Assembly (NCBI GenBank): GCA_021781735.1
Contig: JAJXWF010000011.1
Span: forward strand, 1-37,908
Direction of reading: 5' to 3'
DNA length: 37,908 nt
From: Actinomycetes bacterium
Lineage (GTDB): Bacteria > Actinomycetota > Actinomycetes > Propionibacteriales > Propionibacteriaceae
Shown: positions 6,058-14,671 of the stretch, piece by piece
Layout: the number at the start of each line of letters is the position of its first letter
Position numbering within the stretch: position 1 is the stretch's first letter
Notes under the pieces: generated by a model
What the model was told of the DNA's origin: nothing
The model's database searches: none
What the model saw: only the letters and a program-made list of their open reading frames with translations
Position numbers and translations under genes: made by a program

Positions 6058-6170
6058 ACCGCGAACAACACGGGCACCTCGCGGGTCTATTCCTCGCGCG
6101 AGGGACGCCGGGGCCATTCGCGGCGGGGTCGCGGTGCCGGGGTGGTGACCCGGTGCAGCAAGATGGTCCC

Positions 6171-7544
6171 ATGAGGGCGCTGAGCAGCATGTGGGCACGG
6201 TGGTCGCTGGCGCGCCGGGTCGTGGTCGCATCGGCAGGGGCCCTGACGTTGGCGCTCAGCCTCGGGCTCCTCGGCTTCTCCTGGGCGCTCAACCACATCC
6301 TCGTCCAGGACGCCATCAGCCAGGCCGAGGCGCAGGTGTCCCAGCTGACGGTGTTGGTGCAGACGAGCGAGGTGACGCTCCCCCAGGCCGTGACGAACCT
6401 TCCGACCCAGGGAGCCGAGCTGCAGGTGATCGACCACAGCGGCGCGGTGGTGGCGGCGTCCGACCCGATCGCGCTGAGAAGGGCATTCGTGCCCGCTCCG
6501 CTCGCTCCGGGGGTCGAGACCGTCAGCCACAGCAGCGCGATCGTCACGGATCAGGACTACATCGTCGTGGCCAGCGGGGTCGTCGACGCCGACGGCAGCT
6601 CCTACACCCTGGTAGTGGCCCGCGCGCTCGACATCGAATCGCGAGCGGTGTCGACGGCCAACCTCATCGTGGCGATCGGTTCGCTGTTGCTCGGCGTCCT
6701 CGTGTTGTTCGCCATGTCGCGCATCGTGACCGGGGCCCTGCGTCCGGTGGAGCGTATCCGCAGCGAGGTGTCGCGGATCAAGGCCGCCGGCGCCACCGAG
6801 CGGGTCACGGTCCCCGGAGGCGACGACGAGATCACCCGCCTCGCCGAGACCATGAACGAGATGCTCGATCGCCTGTCCCAGTCGGACTCCGCGATGCGCC
6901 AGTTCGTCTCCGACGCGTCGCACGAGCTTCGCAGCCCGCTCGCCACCCTGCGCACCCATCTCGAGACCTCACCGTCGGATCCGTCCGGAGAGGTGACCCT
7001 CGACGCGTCCCTCACCCGAGGGGAGGTGCTGCGCCTGCAGTCGTTGGTCGAGGATCTGCTCACCCTCGCCAAGGCCGACGACCAGGGCGTCCCCCTGAGC
7101 GTCGAGGAGGTCGACCTCGACGACGTCGTCGACGTCGAGGTGAAGCGGCTCCGGGCCATGGGACGTTGCCCCGTGCGCGCCCACATCGAGCCGGCCCAGG
7201 TGCTCGGTGACACCGGGCGCATCGGGCAGACCCTGCGGAACCTGGTCGACAACGCGGTGCGGCACACCACCGGGGAGGTGATCGTCCGGATGGACGTGTC
7301 CGAGCCGGGCCTGGTCAGCGTCCACATCGACAACGACGGCGACCCGATCCCCGAACAGGACCGGGAGCGCGTGTTCGAACGCTTCGCGCGGCTCGACAGT
7401 GCCCGGGCGCGCGACCGGGGGGGCAGCGGGCTCGGGCTGGCGATCGCCCGCACATTCGCCGAGGCCCACGGCGGGCGGGTCACCACGTCGCGAAGCCCCG
7501 AGGGACGCTGCCGGTTCACGCTGACGCTGCCGATGCTCCCCTGA
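6171..7544 (+). CDS. Two-component sensor histidine kinase
   Basis: This 457-residue inner-membrane kinase has one transmembrane helix near 16-38, an external sensor loop of about 125 residues, a second helix near 163-183, then HAMP (184-236). Next come the H-box SDASHELRSPL with His251 as phospho-acceptor, the N-box LVDNAVRH (about 358-365) and the G-box GGSGLGLAIA (about 417-426). The ATG at 6171 is used; an in-frame GTG at 6153 is an alternative, and neither has a good ribosome binding site. The signal is unknown. The kinase faces its probable partner regulator tail to tail with only four bases between stop codons, which is not the usual co-directional arrangement. Confidence 0.9.
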   Translation: MRALSSMWARWSLARRVVVASAGALTLALSLGLLGFSWALNHILVQDAISQAEAQVSQLTVLVQTSEVTLPQAVTNLPTQGAELQVIDHSGAVVAASDPIALRRAFVPAPLAPGVETVSHSSAIVTDQDYIVVASGVVDADGSSYTLVVARALDIESRAVSTANLIVAIGSLLLGVLVLFAMSRIVTGALRPVERIRSEVSRIKAAGATERVTVPGGDDEITRLAETMNEMLDRLSQSDSAMRQFVSDASHELRSPLATLRTHLETSPSDPSGEVTLDASLTRGEVLRLQSLVEDLLTLAKADDQGVPLSVEEVDLDDVVDVEVKRLRAMGRCPVRAHIEPAQVLGDTGRIGQTLRNLVDNAVRHTTGEVIVRMDVSEPGLVSVHIDNDGDPIPEQDRERVFERFARLDSARARDRGGSGLGLAIARTFAEAHGGRVTTSRSPEGRCRFTLTLPMLP

Positions 7545-7551
7545 CCGGTCA
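7542..7551. other. Palindrome made of the two opposing stop codons
   Basis: TGACCGGTCA is a perfect 10-bp palindrome. Its first three bases are the kinase stop codon (plus strand) and its last three are the regulator stop codon (minus strand). It is too short to be a terminator, so the two transcripts probably overlap at their 3' ends. Confidence 0.7.
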
Positions 7552-8229
7552 GTCGGTCTTCTGGGCCTTCAGCCGGTAGCCCATGCCGCGCACGGTCTCG
7601 ATCGAGTCGCGCCCGAACGCCACGTCGAGCTTCTTGCGCAGGTAGCCCATGTAGACCTCGACGATGTTGTCGCTGCCGTCGAAGGCGGGGTCCCACACGT
7701 TGTCGAGGATCTCGGCCTTCGACACGACATCGTCGGGGTGGCGCATGAGGTAGTGGAGCACGGCGTACTGCTTCGCGGTGAGCGAGACCGATTCGCCCTT
7801 GCACGTGACCAGCCGCTTGTTCGGGTCGAGGGTGATGTCGCCGACGGTGAGCACCACCGGACGCTCCGGGGCCCCCCGCCGGGCCAGGGCCCGCAGCCGG
7901 GCGACGAGCACGACGAAGCTGAACGGCTTGGTGAGGTAGTCGTCGGCGCCCAGGTCGAAGGCGTCGGTCTGGTCGTAGTCGCCGTCCTTGGCCGTGAGCA
8001 TGAGGATCGGCGTCCAGATCTTGCGCTGGCGCAGGTTGGTGAGCACGTCGTAGCCGTGACGCCCCGGCAGCATGACGTCGAGCACGATGACGTCGTAGGG
8101 GTTCTCGGTGGCGAGCCACTGGCCGGTGATGCCGTCGTGGGCGACGTCGACCACCATGCCCTCCCCCACCAGGCCCCGACGGATCGACTCGGCGAGGGGC
8201 GCCTCGTCCTCGACGAGCAGAATGCGCAT
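7549..8229 (-). CDS. OmpR-family response regulator
   Basis: This 226-residue DNA-binding regulator has an N-terminal receiver domain with the acidic pair Glu7/Asp8, phospho-acceptor Asp51 (VLDVMLPG), Thr79 and Lys101 (LTKPF). The C-terminal winged helix (about 125-222) ends with the usual GMGYRL. The start at 8229 is preceded by AAGGAG about nine bases upstream; the ATG at 8247 lies upstream of that site and is less likely. The partner is most likely the convergent kinase. The gene lies 81 bases downstream of the PIG-L gene on the same strand, so it may be cotranscribed with the glycan operon and could regulate envelope genes. Confidence 0.9.
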   Translation of the reverse strand: MRILLVEDEAPLAESIRRGLVGEGMVVDVAHDGITGQWLATENPYDVIVLDVMLPGRHGYDVLTNLRQRKIWTPILMLTAKDGDYDQTDAFDLGADDYLTKPFSFVVLVARLRALARRGAPERPVVLTVGDITLDPNKRLVTCKGESVSLTAKQYAVLHYLMRHPDDVVSKAEILDNVWDPAFDGSDNIVEVYMGYLRKKLDVAFGRDSIETVRGMGYRLKAQKTD

Positions 8230-8310
8230 CGCGTTCATCTCCTTCATGCGCGGGTGGCACCAGTCTTGCGCACAGGGGAGGCGATCACGAGCAGCGCCCC
8301 GCCGAGCCGC

Positions 8311-9108
8311 TCACTCGACCCGGCAGAACCACTCGCGGCCGAGCACGATCCGCGCCAGTGGACGCGGCAGGCCGAGGAGCAGGGTGATCGTGCGGGGCCC
8401 TCCCGTGGCCTGCGACGCGTGGGCGCGCAGCGCGGCGAGCTTGGCGTCGAGGTGATCGCGCACGTCGATGCTGTGGGTGATGAGTTCGCTCGGCGCGAAG
8501 ATCTCGGTGTCGTCGGGGATGCGGGGGACGGGGAGCACGCGTCCGGCCACCCTCAGCAGCCGCAGCACGGGCACGATCAGCCGCCGGTCGACGGTGGCCT
8601 CGAGCAGTTCGGGGGTGCCGGCCAGCGCCGCCGCGCGACGCGCCACGACGTGCACCTGGCGGTGGTCGGGATGACCGTAGCCGCCCGCGGCGTCGTAACT
8701 GGTCAGCACATCGGCGTGTTCCTCGGTGAGGATGTCCGCCAGCCGGTGCGCGGCCTCGTCGACGTCGGCATCGGCGAACGGCGTCGCGCCGTCGGGGTGG
8801 GCTTGAGCCTCGGAGCCCGAGTCCGCATACCCCAGGTGCCTGATCCGGGCCACTCCGAGCACGACGGCCGACTCCTCGAGTTCGCACCACCTGCGGCTTC
8901 CGAGCCCGCCGTCCGCGGATTCCTCATCGCTGAGACCGGCCTCACCCGATGTGGCGACGACCAGCACCACACGGTGGCCAGCCGCCGCGGCCTGGGCCAG
9001 CGAGCCACCGGTGAACAGGGCCTCGTCGTCGGGATGCGCGTGGAAGGCCACGATGGTCTGCGGCACCGGACCGGTGACGAACCGGCGCTGGCGCCGGGGT
9101 CGGGTCAT
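8311..9108 (-). CDS. PIG-L family deacetylase
   Basis: This 265-residue zinc-dependent deacetylase of the GlcNAc-PI de-N-acetylase (LmbE-like) family carries the metal and catalytic motif HPDDE at residues 25-29 and the second motif GHPDHRQVH. Known relatives deacetylate GlcNAc on phosphatidylinositol (PIG-L), GlcNAc-inositol (MshB) or mycothiol conjugates (Mca). It overlaps the upstream GT4 gene by ATGA, so it probably removes an acetyl group from the sugar that GT4 adds. It is unlikely to be MshB itself, because mshA is usually unlinked and the third partner here is a membrane protein. The specific substrate is unknown. Confidence 0.85.
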   Translation of the reverse strand: MTRPRRQRRFVTGPVPQTIVAFHAHPDDEALFTGGSLAQAAAAGHRVVLVVATSGEAGLSDEESADGGLGSRRWCELEESAVVLGVARIRHLGYADSGSEAQAHPDGATPFADADVDEAAHRLADILTEEHADVLTSYDAAGGYGHPDHRQVHVVARRAAALAGTPELLEATVDRRLIVPVLRLLRVAGRVLPVPRIPDDTEIFAPSELITHSIDVRDHLDAKLAALRAHASQATGGPRTITLLLGLPRPLARIVLGREWFCRVE

Positions 9109-10232
9109 CGGGTGATCGCCATCCTGCTCGCCGCCGGCACCGCGACCGGGCGGGCGGCCCGGGCCGCCTCGGTGGCGGCCAGGGAGTACAGCGTGCGGGC
9201 CACACGGGTGGTGTACGCCCAGTCGTGCCGCGGGGCCACCTCGCGGTTGTGGGTGGTGATCCGCCGGCGCAGGGTCGAGTCGGTGAGCAATTGTCCCAGC
9301 CTGGACAGCATCCCGGCGTCATCGGGGGCCAGGAAGCCGTCGACGCCGTCGGTGACGAACTCGGTGAGACCCGACAGGCTGCTGCCGATGACGGGCAGGC
9401 CCATGGCCCGCGCCTCGAGGGCGGCGATCCCGAACGACTCCCGCTGGGCGGGGGCGATGAACACGGCGGACCGGGTGAGCAACCGGTGGATCTCCTCCTG
9501 GGCCAGGCGGCCCGGCAAGGAGATCACCCCGTCGAGTCCGCGGCGGGTGATGAACCGGTGGGCGGCCGCCCGCTGCGGCCCGTCGCCGACGACGACCGCC
9601 CGCGCTCCGGGGGCGACGAGGGGCAGGTCCGCGAGCATCCGGATGAGCGGCATCGTCCGCTTGATCCGGGTGAGCCGCATCACCGCGAGCACGGTGGGCA
9701 CGTCCGGCTCCGCGGCATCGACGGGGTGCCAGCGGTCGAGGTCGACCGCGTTGGGCAGCACATGCACGGGCATCTCGGGTCCGAGCATGCGCTGCAGCGG
9801 TTGGGCGGCGCGACGGCTGACCGCCGACCACACGATCGGCAACCGACGCAGCCCGAGTCCGACGCCGGCCAACTCGGGCAACGGTCCCAGACCCGACCAC
9901 ATGGAGTGCATGGTCACCAGCACCGGGACGCCGCGACGCGCGGCCGTGCGGGCCGCCACGAGGGCGAACGGCGAGAAGATCGACGCGTGCACGTGCACGA
10001 CGTCGGGGCCCAGTTCGTCGATCGCCCGCTCCACCGCGACCCGGGACTCGTCGGGGCCGGCCGCGCGGTCGGGACACACCCGCCGCACGCCGTCGATGTC
10101 AGGGCCGGGCGCGGCGGTGATGAGCATGGCCTCGTCGCCCGTGGACCTCTGGTGAGCCATCCGGTCACGAACGTGCAGTTCGATGCCGCCGACCTTCGGC
10201 AGGTAGCTGTCGGCGGCGTGCAGGATCCTCAC
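9105..10232 (-). CDS. GT4-family glycosyltransferase
   Basis: This 375-residue GT-B fold retaining glycosyltransferase has the N-terminal acceptor-side start MRILHAADSYLPKVGGIELHV. The C-terminal donor-binding domain carries the family EX7E signature in ESFGIAALEARAMGLPVIGS, followed by GLTEFVTDGVDGFL. It would transfer a sugar from a nucleotide donor to a lipid or small-molecule acceptor at the cytoplasmic face. It overlaps both neighbours by ATGA (9105-9108 and 10229-10232), so all three genes should be made together. It differs from MshA in length and in setting. Donor and acceptor are unknown; an N-acetylated donor fits the adjacent deacetylase. Confidence 0.83.
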   Translation of the reverse strand: MRILHAADSYLPKVGGIELHVRDRMAHQRSTGDEAMLITAAPGPDIDGVRRVCPDRAAGPDESRVAVERAIDELGPDVVHVHASIFSPFALVAARTAARRGVPVLVTMHSMWSGLGPLPELAGVGLGLRRLPIVWSAVSRRAAQPLQRMLGPEMPVHVLPNAVDLDRWHPVDAAEPDVPTVLAVMRLTRIKRTMPLIRMLADLPLVAPGARAVVVGDGPQRAAAHRFITRRGLDGVISLPGRLAQEEIHRLLTRSAVFIAPAQRESFGIAALEARAMGLPVIGSSLSGLTEFVTDGVDGFLAPDDAGMLSRLGQLLTDSTLRRRITTHNREVAPRHDWAYTTRVARTLYSLAATEAARAARPVAVPAASRMAITR

Positions 10233-11326
10233 CGGGCACCCCCGTGCGGCTGTGCCGCCAGTGCGCGGGAGCTACGGCCGCGCCGCCATTCCCACAGGGC
10301 CAGCCAGACGCCGCCGACCGGGATCTCCATCGCGAAGGTGAGGGTGCGGTAGAGCAGGATGCCGGCGGTGACGGCGAGCGGGTCGCCGCCTGCTGCCAGC
10401 AGGACGGTGGCGATCCCGAGTTCGACGAGACCCGCCCCGCCGGGGGTGATGCCGCCGAGTGTGAACAGCCGGTCGAGGGCGAACGCCGCGACGATCGCCA
10501 CCAGCGGGACGCTGACTCCGGCGACATGCAGCGACGCCCACAGCAGCGCGAACAGCATGAGGATGTAGCCGGTCACACCGACCGACGCCTGCGCCCAGCC
10601 GCGGCGCACCACGCCGCGCATCTGCTGCTGGGCGGCCACCACCTGCTCGCGGAACGACGGACGCCGCGACGACCCGACGAGCCGGAAGACCCGGGTCACC
10701 GCCCGCTCGGCGAGGGTCGCCAGCCGCGTCCCGATCGCCGGGCTGGCCAGGGCAGCGACCGCGAGCCCGAGCACCACGGCGGCGCCCACTGCGAGGAACA
10801 GGGCTGTGGCGGCCACGTGCCCGAGCACGGCGGACCCAGCCAGGGCGACCCACGGCAGCACGACCGCGACGAGCACCAGCTTGCCGAGCACGTCCCAGAT
10901 GTTGCTGACGAGCGTGTAGGTCGCCACATGTGAGCGGGAATAGCCCCACGAGCGCAGCATGCGGTAGTTGAGTGCGATGCCGGCGGCACCGCCGAGCGGC
11001 ATCACATTGGCGACCGCACTGCCGGTGAGGCTGAGGGTCAGGGCCCGACGGGAGGTGAGCGTCGGCAGTGAGGCGCGCAACACCAGGGTGTTCACCAGCA
11101 GGCCGAGCACCCACAGCACGACCAGACCGGCCAGCCACCGCAGGGGCACCGCGGTGATCGCCTGACCGGTCGCACTCCATGCGACGCCGGTGACCGCGGG
11201 CAGCCCGATGCCGAGCAGTGCCACGGCGAGGACGATGCCCGCGAGCGACCGCACCCGCTGCCCGCGGGTCGCCCGGCGGCGGAGGCTCCCAGCCAGGCGG
11301 TCGGCGTCCAGGCTGAGAGCGGTCAT
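10229..11326 (-). CDS. Flippase-like integral membrane protein (LPG synthase TM / UPF0104 family)
   Basis: This 365-residue protein of about eight transmembrane segments belongs to the YbhN/AglD-like family (lysylphosphatidylglycerol synthase transmembrane domain without the catalytic domain). The family's glycine-rich signatures are visible as LGGAAGIALNYRML and GGITPGGAGLVELGI. Related proteins are linked to lipid or lipid-linked sugar handling. It is the first gene of the operon with GT4 and PIG-L, so it may flip or anchor their glycolipid product. The ATG at 11326 has only a weak upstream GATGG. Function is inferred from context. Confidence 0.8.
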   Translation of the reverse strand: MTALSLDADRLAGSLRRRATRGQRVRSLAGIVLAVALLGIGLPAVTGVAWSATGQAITAVPLRWLAGLVVLWVLGLLVNTLVLRASLPTLTSRRALTLSLTGSAVANVMPLGGAAGIALNYRMLRSWGYSRSHVATYTLVSNIWDVLGKLVLVAVVLPWVALAGSAVLGHVAATALFLAVGAAVVLGLAVAALASPAIGTRLATLAERAVTRVFRLVGSSRRPSFREQVVAAQQQMRGVVRRGWAQASVGVTGYILMLFALLWASLHVAGVSVPLVAIVAAFALDRLFTLGGITPGGAGLVELGIATVLLAAGGDPLAVTAGILLYRTLTFAMEIPVGGVWLALWEWRRGRSSRALAAQPHGGAR

Positions 11327-11420: not shown

Positions 11421-14400
11421 TCAACCTCGCGCCCAGCGCAGCGTGACGATCTGGAAAGGACGCAGCACGAGCCGGGCGCGGCCGTCCTCGACCCTCAGCG
11501 GCGACTGGTCGTCGAGCGGACGCTCCAGCAGGTCGGTGAGCGAGACACCCCTCGCGTCGGCGTGCAGGGCGACGGTGACGCCGGCCCGGGTACCGAGCGA
11601 CTCGTACAGCCGCACCACGACATCGTCGCCGTCCTCCGCGAGCTTGACCGCCTCGACCACGACCGCCGGGGTGTCAACGCTCACCAGCGGCTCGACGCCG
11701 GCACCGGGGGCGTCGCGCGCCGGCAGGTTGCGCCGGTAGCCGTGGGCGATCGCGTCGGCCGTCGTGGCACCCGCCACGACCCCGAAGCTGAATTCGTGCC
11801 CGCCCTGGTCCGCCTCGGGGTCGGGGAACACGGGGGCCCGCAGCACCGTGGCCCGCATGACGGTGGTCGTGCCGCCGTCGTCACGGGTGTGCCGGGTGAT
11901 GTCGTAGCCGTAGGTGGACTCATTGGTGAGTGCGACCCCGTAGTCGGGTTCGGCCACCCGTACCCACCGATGGGCCGCGGTCTCGAACCGGGCGGCGTCC
12001 CAACTCGTGTTCACCGCGATCGGCCGGTCGAGATGGCCGAACTGGATCTCGGAGGTCGCCACCTCGGTGCGCAGGTCGACCGGGACCGCGAGCTTGAGCA
12101 GCCGGTTGCGTTCGTGCCAGTCGACGTGCAGGCCGATCGTCAGCTCGGGGTCGGCGGGCTCGAGCCGGTACTGCTGCACGATCGTGGATGCCGTGGTGCG
12201 TCGGTGCACCGTGACGACCGCGGCGGTGCCGTCGTGACCGATGTCGAGCGTGTCGGCGCCGTCGAGGTCGACGACCCGCGTGCGGTAGTAGTCGTAGATG
12301 TCCCAGGCGCCCCAGTTGAGGGGGTGATCATCGTGCAGTTGGAGGCGTCCGATCGGTTCGGCGGGGGTGACCAGTTCGCGGCCGGCCCGCTGGTCGAGCA
12401 GCGAGGTGACCAGACCGCGCGCGTCGATGGTGACCCGCACCACGCCGTTGTCGAGCACCACGCCGTCGTCAACCCGATCGATCCTCACCGCGTCCTGCTC
12501 GGCGGGCACGCCGACTCCGAACGCGGGCACGCCGCGGACGGACACAGGGGCAGGGTTGGCGAGCGCGCCCGCGTCCGACCCACCGCCGAGGGCCGCCAGG
12601 GAGACGCCGACCAGTTCGTGGAGTTCGCGAGTGATCCCGGCGTGGCTGGCCTCCGCCTCCTGGTGGACCCAGGCGATCGAGGATCCGGGCAGGATGTCGT
12701 GGAACTGCAGCAGTAGGACCTGCCGCCACAGCCGGTCGAGGGCCCCGCGCGGATAGGCGGCACCGGTGCGCACGGACGCCGTGGTCGCCCACAGCTCGGC
12801 CTCGCGGAGCAGGTGCTCGTTGCGGCGGTTTCCCGCCTTGGTGCGGTGCTGGCTCGTGTAGGTGCCGCGGTGCAGTTCGAGGTACATCTCACCGCTCCAC
12901 ACGGGCGCGTCGGGGTACTCGGCGATCGCCCGCTCGAAGAAGCGTTGCGGCGTCGAGAGCTCGACCCGGGGAGCACCCTCGAGGTCGGCGAACCGGCGCG
13001 CGGCCTGCAGCATCTCGCGGGTGGGTCCACCGCCGCCGTCACCGAACCCATACGGTGCGAGCGACACCGTCGCTCCGCCCCGCTCGGCGAACGTGTGCTC
13101 CGAGCGGAGCAGCTCCTCCGCCGAGAGCGTCGAGTTGTACGTGTCGACCGGCGGGAAATGGGTGAAGATCCGGGTGCCGTCGAGACCCTCCCACCAGAAG
13201 GTGTGGTGCGGGAAGTGGTTCGTGTCGTTCCACGAGATCTTCTGGGTGAGGAAGTACTTCTTCCCGGCGAGCCGGGCGATCTGCGGCACCGCCGCCGAGT
13301 AGCCGAACGTGTCGGGCAGCCACACCTCCTGAGGTTCGACGCCGAACTCATCGAGGAAGAACCGCGTGCCGGTGAGGAACTGGCGCACCAGCGCCTCGCC
13401 GCCGGTGAGGTTGATGTCGGACTCGACCCACATGCCCCCGACCGGGATGAACCGGCCCGCCGCGACGGCGTCCTTCATGCGGGCCCAGATGTCGGGGTAG
13501 CCGTCCTTCATCCACTGGTACTGCTGCGCCGAACTGCACGCGAAGGTGACCTCGGGGTCGGTGTCGATGAGGTCGAGCACGTTGCTGAACGTGCGGGCGC
13601 ACTTGCGGATCGTCTCGCGGATCGGCCACAGCCAGGCCGAGTCGATGTGCGCGTGCCCCACCGCGTGCACGGTGTGCGCGGACGCCGAGGCGGGCCGCTC
13701 GAGCATCGGGGCGAGCACCTGGCGGGCGGTGGGGGCGCTCCCGTGCAGGTCGTCCCAGTCGACGGCGTCCAGCATGGCCGACAGGGCTGCGATGATCTCG
13801 CTGCGCCTGGTGCTTCCGGGCAGGTGCTCCGCCAGGCCACGGAGGGCTTCGATGTCGGCGACGAGTTCCCACACGGTGAGATCACGCAGCCCGAGGTCCA
13901 GTCGCTGCACGCGGTAGATCGGGGCGGTCCCCGCCGTCAGCTTGTCGCCCAGCGGCGTCGGGTTCACCTGGCCGTCGGAGGTGACGCGAGGGTTGGAGGC
14001 CGCCTCGAGGAACACCTCGAAGGTCTCCCCCGGTGCGCCGACCCGTAGCCAGCGGTTCTCGGGCTCGATCGCCTTGATCGCCGTGCCGTCGGATCGCCAC
14101 GCGAGCGCCTCGGCCTGGAAGCCGACGCTGTTGCCGTGGAACCCGAGGTCGACGACCAGCTCGGGACTGGCACCGGGCACGTCCGCCCAGGACGTCGGCA
14201 CCTCACCCCGCACCCGGAACCAGGTCGTGCCCCACGGTCGCCCCCACGGGCGACCGACCACGAACGGCTCGAAGGCGGCGTCCCTCGCGGTCGCGAAGGG
14301 AATCGGCTCGTCGGGCACCTCCCACGCCGTCACCTCGACCGGAGCGGTGTCGAGGTAGAGGTCGTGCGGCACGTGATCACGAAGGAAGCGATCCAGCCGG

Positions 14401-14429
14401 GCGAACACCTGGGGCGAGCGGTCGAACAC
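11421..14429 (-). CDS. GH38 alpha-mannosidase
   Basis: This 1002-residue enzyme is predicted to hydrolyse alpha-mannosidic bonds inside the cell, since it has no signal peptide. The GH38 catalytic domain (about 255-520) begins with the zinc-binding GHAHIDSAWLWP (His261, Asp263). The likely nucleophile is Asp338 in MWVESDINLTGGEALVR. The zinc-site segment LPDTFGYSAAVPQI and the middle and C-terminal beta domains follow, so the enzyme is full length. The GTG at 14429 is chosen because AGGAG lies six bases upstream and because the extra N-terminal residues of the longer frame (to 14486) look non-coding. It stands alone, with no adjacent transporter or regulator, next to a repeat-rich intergenic region. 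Confidence 0.9.
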   Translation of the reverse strand: MFDRSPQVFARLDRFLRDHVPHDLYLDTAPVEVTAWEVPDEPIPFATARDAAFEPFVVGRPWGRPWGTTWFRVRGEVPTSWADVPGASPELVVDLGFHGNSVGFQAEALAWRSDGTAIKAIEPENRWLRVGAPGETFEVFLEAASNPRVTSDGQVNPTPLGDKLTAGTAPIYRVQRLDLGLRDLTVWELVADIEALRGLAEHLPGSTRRSEIIAALSAMLDAVDWDDLHGSAPTARQVLAPMLERPASASAHTVHAVGHAHIDSAWLWPIRETIRKCARTFSNVLDLIDTDPEVTFACSSAQQYQWMKDGYPDIWARMKDAVAAGRFIPVGGMWVESDINLTGGEALVRQFLTGTRFFLDEFGVEPQEVWLPDTFGYSAAVPQIARLAGKKYFLTQKISWNDTNHFPHHTFWWEGLDGTRIFTHFPPVDTYNSTLSAEELLRSEHTFAERGGATVSLAPYGFGDGGGGPTREMLQAARRFADLEGAPRVELSTPQRFFERAIAEYPDAPVWSGEMYLELHRGTYTSQHRTKAGNRRNEHLLREAELWATTASVRTGAAYPRGALDRLWRQVLLLQFHDILPGSSIAWVHQEAEASHAGITRELHELVGVSLAALGGGSDAGALANPAPVSVRGVPAFGVGVPAEQDAVRIDRVDDGVVLDNGVVRVTIDARGLVTSLLDQRAGRELVTPAEPIGRLQLHDDHPLNWGAWDIYDYYRTRVVDLDGADTLDIGHDGTAAVVTVHRRTTASTIVQQYRLEPADPELTIGLHVDWHERNRLLKLAVPVDLRTEVATSEIQFGHLDRPIAVNTSWDAARFETAAHRWVRVAEPDYGVALTNESTYGYDITRHTRDDGGTTTVMRATVLRAPVFPDPEADQGGHEFSFGVVAGATTADAIAHGYRRNLPARDAPGAGVEPLVSVDTPAVVVEAVKLAEDGDDVVVRLYESLGTRAGVTVALHADARGVSLTDLLERPLDDQSPLRVEDGRARLVLRPFQIVTLRWARG

Positions 14430-14671
14430 GGAGACTCCTGGGGTAGGGCATGGACGTGGACCGGGGTCCAGCCAAACACATCGCACCCCCTCAGTTCGGG
14501 CGCCGCGCCCGACCTCGCAATCCGCAGGCGCGTGACGTGTCAGGCGTCCCGGCGGGACAAGGACGGCCCACTCGCCCGCAGATCCGGAGGCGAGCGTCCC
14601 GTGCTCGGGCCGGTGCGCCGAGCTCGGCGTCCCGGTGCTCGGGGTCGGGGTCCCGGTGTGCCGGAGTCAGG

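What the first reader, a model, noticed from the sequence alone, without database searches (positions are those of the whole stretch)
8311..11326. Flippase-like protein, GT4 and PIG-L deacetylase form a coupled operon with GPI/mycothiol logic
GT4 plus PIG-L is the enzyme pair that starts GPI anchors (PIG-A/PIG-L) and mycothiol (MshA/MshB): add GlcNAc, then deacetylate it. Here the pair is translationally coupled to a polytopic protein of the LPG-synthase membrane family. This suggests synthesis and export or anchoring of a glucosamine-bearing lipid. A two-component regulator directly downstream hints at envelope-stress control. I cannot match it to a described pathway.
Basis: partly seen in the sequence, partly recalled or inferred. 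Interest (0 to 1): 0.55.

Follow-up and report, generated by a model that had tools for sequence, protein, structure and literature searches.

The report
Actinobacterial glucosamine-lipid synthesis and flipping operon
Three overlapping bacterial genes look like a machine that puts a positively charged sugar, glucosamine, on a membrane lipid and moves it to the cell surface, and they may be the missing genes for glucosamine lipids that taxonomists have long used to classify soil actinobacteria.

Summary
The trio is real and the coordinates are exact: LPG_synthase_TM protein (10229-11326), GT4 glycosyltransferase (9105-10232) and PIG-L deacetylase (8311-9108), all minus strand, each junction a 4-bp overlap. 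It is a conserved module. In 396 evenly drawn Actinomycetota genomes, all 7 with the trio-type GT4 carry the three genes within 3.3 kb. Of the 80 best named PIG-L loci, 65 hold all three, in five orders. Catalytic residues are invariant, the membrane protein folds like the MprF flippase domain, and PIG-L and GT4 stand apart from mycothiol enzymes.

Best reading: GlcNAc is added to a membrane lipid, deacetylated, and the cationic glucosaminyl lipid is flipped outward. That logic is known from hexSDF (C. difficile) and gpgSDF (P. aeruginosa); here the deacetylase is of another family. 36 of 36 Streptosporangiaceae loci have the trio, and genera of that family are described as having unknown glucosamine-containing phospholipids (type PIV). 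I propose this trio makes them; that is untested, and the acceptor lipid is unknown. The mycothiol reading is unlikely, though this genome shows no canonical MshB.

The parts
10229..11326 (-). MprF-type flippase domain protein (LPG_synthase_TM, PF03706), 365 aa, first gene; no aminoacyl-transferase half
   Evidence: Pfam 77.6 bits; AlphaFold2 model pLDDT 91.4; all six PDB matches with E<=0.001 are MprF; the only PF03706 hit in this genome
9105..10232 (-). GT4 glycosyltransferase, 375 aa, GTG start inside the end of the LPG gene; putative GlcNAc transferase to a membrane lipid
   Evidence: Pfam; Glu265/Glu273, Arg186, Lys191, Gly15-Gly16 invariant in 28 members; nearest curated family BshA 103 bits, under its cut-off; model closest to BshA, PimA, MshA; own clade in tree
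8311..9108 (-). PIG-L/LmbE-type zinc de-N-acetylase, 265 aa, start inside the end of the GT4 gene
   Evidence: Pfam 97.1 bits; His25, Asp27, Asp28, His146, His149 invariant in 25 members, matching the MshB active site; separate from MshB in tree
7549..8247 (-). OmpR-type response regulator 63 bp downstream; possible but unproven regulator
   Evidence: Pfam Response_reg and Trans_reg_C; relatives in 4 of 80 loci
6153..7544 (+). Histidine kinase, tail to tail with the regulator; likely partner
   Evidence: Pfam HAMP, HisKA, HATPase_c

Best explanation
The three genes make and export a glucosaminyl membrane lipid. The GT4 adds GlcNAc (probably from UDP-GlcNAc) to a lipid on the inner leaflet; the soluble PIG-L enzyme removes the acetyl group, leaving a free amine; the MprF-type membrane protein moves the cationic lipid to the outer leaflet, which makes the cell surface less negative. 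Shown here: overlapping genes, conserved module, intact catalytic residues, MprF fold, separation from mycothiol enzymes. Inferred: donor sugar, acceptor lipid (PI and PG should be available; PE looks absent in this genome), order of steps, direction of flipping, physiological role. By analogy with hexSDF the role would be tolerance of membrane-active antimicrobials.
For: Module kept together: 7 of 7 genomes with the trio-type GT4 among 396; 65 of 80 best PIG-L loci with all three, 79 with the GT4, in five different orders. Five catalytic residues of PIG-L invariant in 25 members; EX7E glutamates of the GT4 invariant in 28. Neither enzyme has a membrane-span-like stretch, the LPG protein has many. 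MprF fold. GT4 nearest to GlcNAc transferases BshA and MshA and to the phosphatidylinositol enzyme PimA. The GT4 segment after His109 carries Trp in 28 of 28 members and a net positive charge in 24 of 28, unlike this genome's MshA (-4, no Trp). Same activities proven or predicted together in gpgSDF and hexSDF. PI, PG and cardiolipin synthesis genes present in this genome.
Against: No chemistry: donor, acceptor and product are inferred. The GT4 passes no curated family cut-off. In 14 of the 79 loci with GT4 and PIG-L no LPG relative was found nearby, two of them (L052, L101) ending within 400 bases of PIG-L, so export may be separable. The flippase step is unproven even in the two model operons. 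The segment comparison has only two comparators.
Confidence: 0.74

Rival explanations
1. Polyprenyl or wall-glycan route: the GT4 glycosylates a polyprenyl carrier or a glycan precursor, PIG-L deacetylates it, and the membrane protein (YbhN/AglD-like) moves the sugar-carrier for wall or exopolysaccharide decoration.
For: PF03706 is a broad family; the GT4 also matches exopolysaccharide transferases such as EpsE (77 bits; 28 of 28 members).
Against: Neighbour clustering of the 80 loci showed no further gene family shared across the lineages beyond the trio; the next cluster (37 loci) is regulator-like and its members are mostly of one family. The fold match is to MprF, which carries phospholipid derivatives.
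Confidence: 0.13
2. Mycothiol locus in this organism: the window PIG-L serves as MshB, with the GT4 and the membrane protein in an unrelated or accessory role.
For: No MshB over the cut-off in this genome; the window PIG-L scores 135 bits with the MshB model and the C156 paralogue 134. MshC, Mca and a cut MshA are present, so something must deacetylate.
Against: 19 of 26 distinct genomes that carry the GT4-PIG-L pair have a separate MshB over the cut-off. In the tree the window PIG-L lies with 28 PIG-Ls of this group, apart from 37 others, support 97. The C156 paralogue is an alternative stand-in.
Confidence: 0.07
3. GPI-like special case of the best explanation: the acceptor is phosphatidylinositol and GlcN-PI is a lipid or an anchor for a larger lipoglycan.
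For: PI-phosphate synthase, inositol-phosphate synthase and a PI-mannoside acyltransferase are in the genome; PimA is among the closest structures (Z 34.3); Microbispora and Thermobispora are described as type PIV without PG; a 'glycoaminophosphatidylinositol' is reported from Jatrophihabitans (PMC11533595 passage).
Against: No PIG-A match. PG is reported in two Nonomuraea species, so PG is open as acceptor. No further anchor-building genes in the neighbourhood.
Confidence: 0.35

Closest known systems
gpgSDF, glucosaminyl-phosphatidylglycerol operon of Pseudomonas aeruginosa (PMC12713373; abstract and passages read)
   Same: Three-gene operon of a GT4, a deacetylase and a YbhN-type flippase; GlcNAc added to a lipid and then deacetylated.
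   Different: GpgD is COG3233 in that paper, here PIG-L (PF02585); the GT4 here reaches 42 bits against a cut-off of 480 in the GpgS model; acceptor unknown here; other gene order.
hexSDF with HexRK of Clostridioides difficile (PMC10128005; passages read)
   Same: Synthase, deacetylase, MprF-like flippase without the synthase half, and a two-component system next door.
   Different: HexS is annotated as a monogalactosyldiacylglycerol synthase and HexD as a polysaccharide deacetylase, not PIG-L; the two-component link is rare in the actinobacterial loci.
MshA/MshB of mycothiol synthesis
   Same: GlcNAc transfer by a GT4 and deacetylation by a PIG-L enzyme with the same active-site residues.
   Different: Separate clades, under all cut-offs, and a membrane protein in the operon.
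PIG-A/PIG-L of GPI anchors
   Same: Logic of GlcNAc transfer then deacetylation; PIG-L domain.
   Different: The GT4 does not match PIG-A in Pfam; acceptor not shown; prokaryotic operon with a flippase domain.
MprF flippase domain
   Same: Family and fold.
   Different: No aminoacyl-phosphatidylglycerol synthase half; 365 aa.

Membership tests
Glucosaminyl-lipid operon of the hexSDF/gpgSDF kind | Synthase, deacetylase and MprF-type flippase genes side by side | tested here: met
Glucosaminyl-lipid operon of the hexSDF/gpgSDF kind | Synthase of the GpgS family (NF053787 over cut-off 480) | tested here: not met
   42.4 bits for the window GT4; 22 of 28 members match at E<=1e-8, best 2.2e-15
Glucosaminyl-lipid operon of the hexSDF/gpgSDF kind | Deacetylase of the polysaccharide-deacetylase/COG3233 type | tested here: not met
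   Only PF02585 PIG-L matched; family of HexD/GpgD as stated in the papers
Glucosaminyl-lipid operon of the hexSDF/gpgSDF kind | Glucosaminyl lipid made, acetylated form without deacetylase | not testable with these tools
   Needs lipidomics
Mycothiol MshB | TIGR03445 over cut-off 224 and placement with MshB in a tree | tested here: not met
   135 bits; separate clade, support 97
Mycothiol MshA | TIGR03449 over cut-off 462 and placement with MshA in a tree | tested here: not met
   58 bits; separate from this genome's MshA
PIG-L/LmbE zinc deacetylases (PF02585) | Domain over cut-off and zinc/base residues | tested here: met
   residue table PMC4101496 passage
GPI synthesis PIG-A | Match to a PIG-A model | tested here: not met
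   No PIG-A model among the Pfam matches of any of 28 members at E<=0.001
MprF flippase domain | PF03706 and MprF fold | tested here: met
MprF, whole bifunctional enzyme | C-terminal aminoacyl transferase half | tested here: not met
   365 aa; NF033480 37 bits against 600, matched stretch in the N-terminal part only
Genes of Lechevalier type PIV (GluNU) lipids | Present in genera typed PIV | tested here: inconclusive
   36 of 36 Streptosporangiaceae loci and Intrasporangium have the trio; typing mostly genus-level; relatedness not corrected
Genes of Lechevalier type PIV (GluNU) lipids | Absent from genera typed without glucosamine lipids | not tested

The most novel reading that the evidence does not exclude
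This trio is the biosynthesis and export pathway of the 'unknown glucosamine-containing phospholipids' (GluNU) that define Lechevalier phospholipid type PIV, so a chemotaxonomic marker without known genes would be a surface-exposed cationic lipid, made by a GT4/PIG-L/MprF-domain module that arose independently of gpgSDF and hexSDF.
Probability: 0.42. Interest if true: 0.75.

Novelty: new variant of a known kind. Interest (0 to 1): 0.58.

Why it matters
It would supply genes for a class of membrane lipids used in actinobacterial taxonomy since 1977. It would show that the 'add GlcNAc, deacetylate, flip' route was assembled more than once with different deacetylases, and give soil bacteria such as Nonomuraea a candidate envelope-charge system that one deletion and one lipid extract can test.

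Tried and rejected
Mycothiol locus: rejected as the main reading, with the caveat that this genome shows no MshB over the cut-off. My own first reading of the C124 hit as MshB was wrong; it is Mca.

GPI homology: no PIG-A match. Defence system: no PADLOC match.

Two-component control as part of the pathway: the window regulator has relatives in 4 of 80 loci (L106, L074, L049, L063). Kinases were confirmed by Pfam in L049, L074 and L106. In L049 the order is regulator-kinase-LPG-GT4-PIG-L on one strand, but the regulators are only 33-36% identical there and 51% in L106, so this looks like local recruitment.

GH38 mannosidase as a fourth member: only 1 of 80 loci (L087), plus the two congeners.

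A sequence search of the membrane protein in the PDB gave one chance-level hit (E 0.22). The plasmid collection gave one relevant record, a Nonomuraea replicon without annotation in the stretch.

Literature searches for a published link between this trio and glucosamine lipids of actinobacteria listed none; the library holds open-licence papers only.
Full report
Observation. Pfam gives LPG_synthase_TM, GT4 domains and PIG-L, all over the gathering cut-offs. A response regulator starts 63 bp downstream on the same strand; its likely kinase lies on the other strand, tail to tail. Two unnamed congeners keep LPG and GT4 in the same order, and one also the start of PIG-L before its contig ends. dN/dS to the nearer one is 0.17 (LPG), 0.19 (GT4) and 0.16 (PIG-L, 111 codons).

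The module beyond this genome. In these 80, a GT4 related to the window's is found in 79 and an LPG relative in 65, within about 6 kb. Complete trios occur in five orders: <GT4 >PIGL >LPG (56), >LPG >GT4 >PIGL as in the window (5), >GT4 >PIGL >LPG (2), >PIGL >LPG >GT4 (1), <GT4 <LPG >PIGL (1). Genes on the same strand often overlap by 4 bp. Because these 80 were chosen by PIG-L similarity, I also searched 396 Actinomycetota genomes, drawn evenly by the tool, with profiles of the three proteins (only the first few candidates per genome are scored). The GT4 profile at E<=1e-60 hits 7 genomes; in 7 of 7 the best PIG-L and LPG hits lie beside it, the whole spanning 3.0-3.2 kb. G195 holds a second GT4 elsewhere. 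So the module is uncommon in the phylum but tight where it occurs. PIG-L relatives of lower score exist in many genomes without this GT4 (113 of 396 genomes have a PIG-L hit at E<=1e-40), so PIG-L alone is not diagnostic.

What the proteins are. PIG-L: His25, Asp27, Asp28, His146 and His149 are invariant in 25 members and align with the MshB residues that bind zinc and act as base (residue table in PMC4101496, passages read). A hydropathy scan shows no membrane-span-like stretch in PIG-L or GT4. GT4: Glu265 and Glu273, Arg186, Lys191 and Gly15-Gly16 are invariant in 28 members. Its best curated relative is the UDP-GlcNAc enzyme BshA (103 bits, cut-off 274) but it passes no cut-off; by structure BshA (Z 35.0), PimA (34.3) and MshA (33.8) are close. 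That fits a GlcNAc transferase but does not prove the donor. The segment after the invariant His109 has at least one Trp in 28 of 28 members and a net positive charge in 24 of 28; this genome's MshA has charge -4 and no Trp there, its PimA-like protein +4 and one Trp. With two comparators this is only a hint of a membrane-bound acceptor. LPG protein: model pLDDT 91.4; the six PDB matches with E<=0.001 are all MprF. It holds only the flippase half.

Not mycothiol. Trees put 29 PIG-Ls of this group (window plus 28, five of them from loci without LPG) on one side of a branch with support 97 against 37 other PIG-Ls (MshB, Mca and others), and 29 GT4s against 33 others with support 100 (quick method, some long branches among the others). 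The MshB search covered 28 handles, which are 27 genomes because G363 and G463 are one; G152 lacks the trio GT4, and in L048 and L072 no LPG gene was found near the pair. 20 of 28 handles have an MshB over the cut-off; among the 26 distinct genomes with the GT4-PIG-L pair it is 19. In the window's genome MshC (612 bits) and Mca (462 bits) pass their cut-offs, and MshA is cut by a contig end at 360 of 406 positions. No MshB passes. Another PIG-L on contig C156 scores like the window's (134 and 135 bits). In the family search 17 of 37 genomes have an MshB over the cut-off, and partial-score hits of the C156 span (2 to about 260) were seen in five genomes, the window's included, all without it; I noticed this afterwards, and outside the family G141 and G195 have both. 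The window PIG-L as MshB stays possible for this organism, at low probability.

How it most likely works. GT4 adds GlcNAc to a lipid, PIG-L deacetylates it, and the MprF-type protein carries the cationic lipid outward. The same sequence of activities is documented for gpgSDF: the gpgD mutant accumulates GlcNAc-PG, and expression in E. coli makes GlcNAc-PG and GlcN-PG (PMC12713373, abstract and passages). It is also described for hexSDF, under the HexRK two-component system (PMC10128005, passages). In both, the flippase step is unproven. Those deacetylases are described as COG3233 and polysaccharide deacetylase, not PIG-L. So the actinobacterial trio works like these operons but is not built from the same parts: the deacetylase belongs to another family and the GT4 is far from the GpgS model (42 bits, cut-off 480). 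In the window's genome PI-phosphate synthase, PI-mannoside acyltransferase, cardiolipin synthase, PgsA and inositol-phosphate synthase are present; the three CDP-alcohol transferases found were named PI-phosphate synthase, cardiolipin synthase and PgsA, none PssA, so PE is probably absent and this could be the main aminolipid. The draft genome is 98.9% complete, so absences are soft.

A link to an old marker. 36 of the 80 loci are from Streptosporangiaceae and all 36 have all three genes. Published descriptions, seen as passages: Streptosporangium is phospholipid type IV and S. [quoted passage not shown] Microbispora is type IV with 'unknown glucosamine-containing compounds' and no PG (PMC8049491); Nonomuraea has 'ninhydrin-positive phosphoglycolipids' (PMC10694255; similar in PMC11091084); Intrasporangium calvum has glucosamine-containing phospholipids (PMC3035309), and the trio is in I. 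chromatireducens (L059). A genome paper that sought genes for the phospholipid types names PssA/Psd, Pcs and PgpA and, in the passages I saw, no gene for GluNU (PMC4048454). Against: N. corallina MCN248, the very strain of L102, was reported with unidentified glycolipids and phospholipids, but no ninhydrin-positive lipid is named for it; Thermobispora has only trace amounts (PMC3035289) and I did not look at its genome; three Terrabacter loci lack the LPG gene; Nocardioides (two loci) and Dactylosporangium (one locus with the trio, one without LPG), which I recall as not type PIV, are in the list; Embleya, Haloechinothrix and Pseudonocardia are said to have glucosamine lipids (PMC6113628, PMC11533595, passages) and are not among my named loci. 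Relatedness is not corrected for: the Streptosporangiaceae may count as one event. So this is a hypothesis with a direct test.

Regulation. The window regulator has relatives in 4 of 80 loci, including the two closest relatives, L049 and L074. In L049 regulator, kinase, LPG, GT4 and PIG-L follow one another on one strand. The pathway as a whole is not tied to a two-component system.

Other papers seen as passages and used little: PMC4585250 (GluNU in Saccharomonospora) and PMC9636437 (a glucosamine phosphoglycolipid of Thermus).

Verdict. Real, conserved and functionally coherent; a new variant of a recently described kind. Its value lies in the testable link to type PIV lipids.

Noticed in passing
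window 11421-14486 (-): GH38 alpha-mannosidase directly upstream of the trio, kept there in both congeners; also near the trio in Actinopolymorpha L087 at 52% identity.
   Followed up: partly
L137 (own genome C156:9246-9971): A second PIG-L enzyme that may stand in for MshB in genera of this family that lack canonical MshB.
   Followed up: partly
L049:6844-7500 (+): A VTT-domain (DedA-like) membrane protein starts 24 bp after PIG-L in Nocardioides islandensis; another lipid-transport type protein beside the trio.
   Followed up: no
L044, L047, L053 and 34 other loci, after the LPG gene: A gene of about 1130 codons, regulator-like by eye (AfsR/SARP type, recalled), follows the LPG gene in 37 of 80 loci.
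   Followed up: no
own genome, C206 and C78: Only three CDP-alcohol phosphotransferases, none PssA, so PE synthesis looks absent.
   Followed up: partly
L137:4353-5453 (-): A frame in the own genome matches DUF285 (PF03382) strongly (366 bits), a family named from Mycoplasma, unexpected in a high-GC actinobacterium.
   Followed up: no
window 6153-7544 (+) and 7549-8247 (-): Histidine kinase and response regulator arranged tail to tail with a 4-bp gap, not in the usual tandem order.
   Followed up: partly
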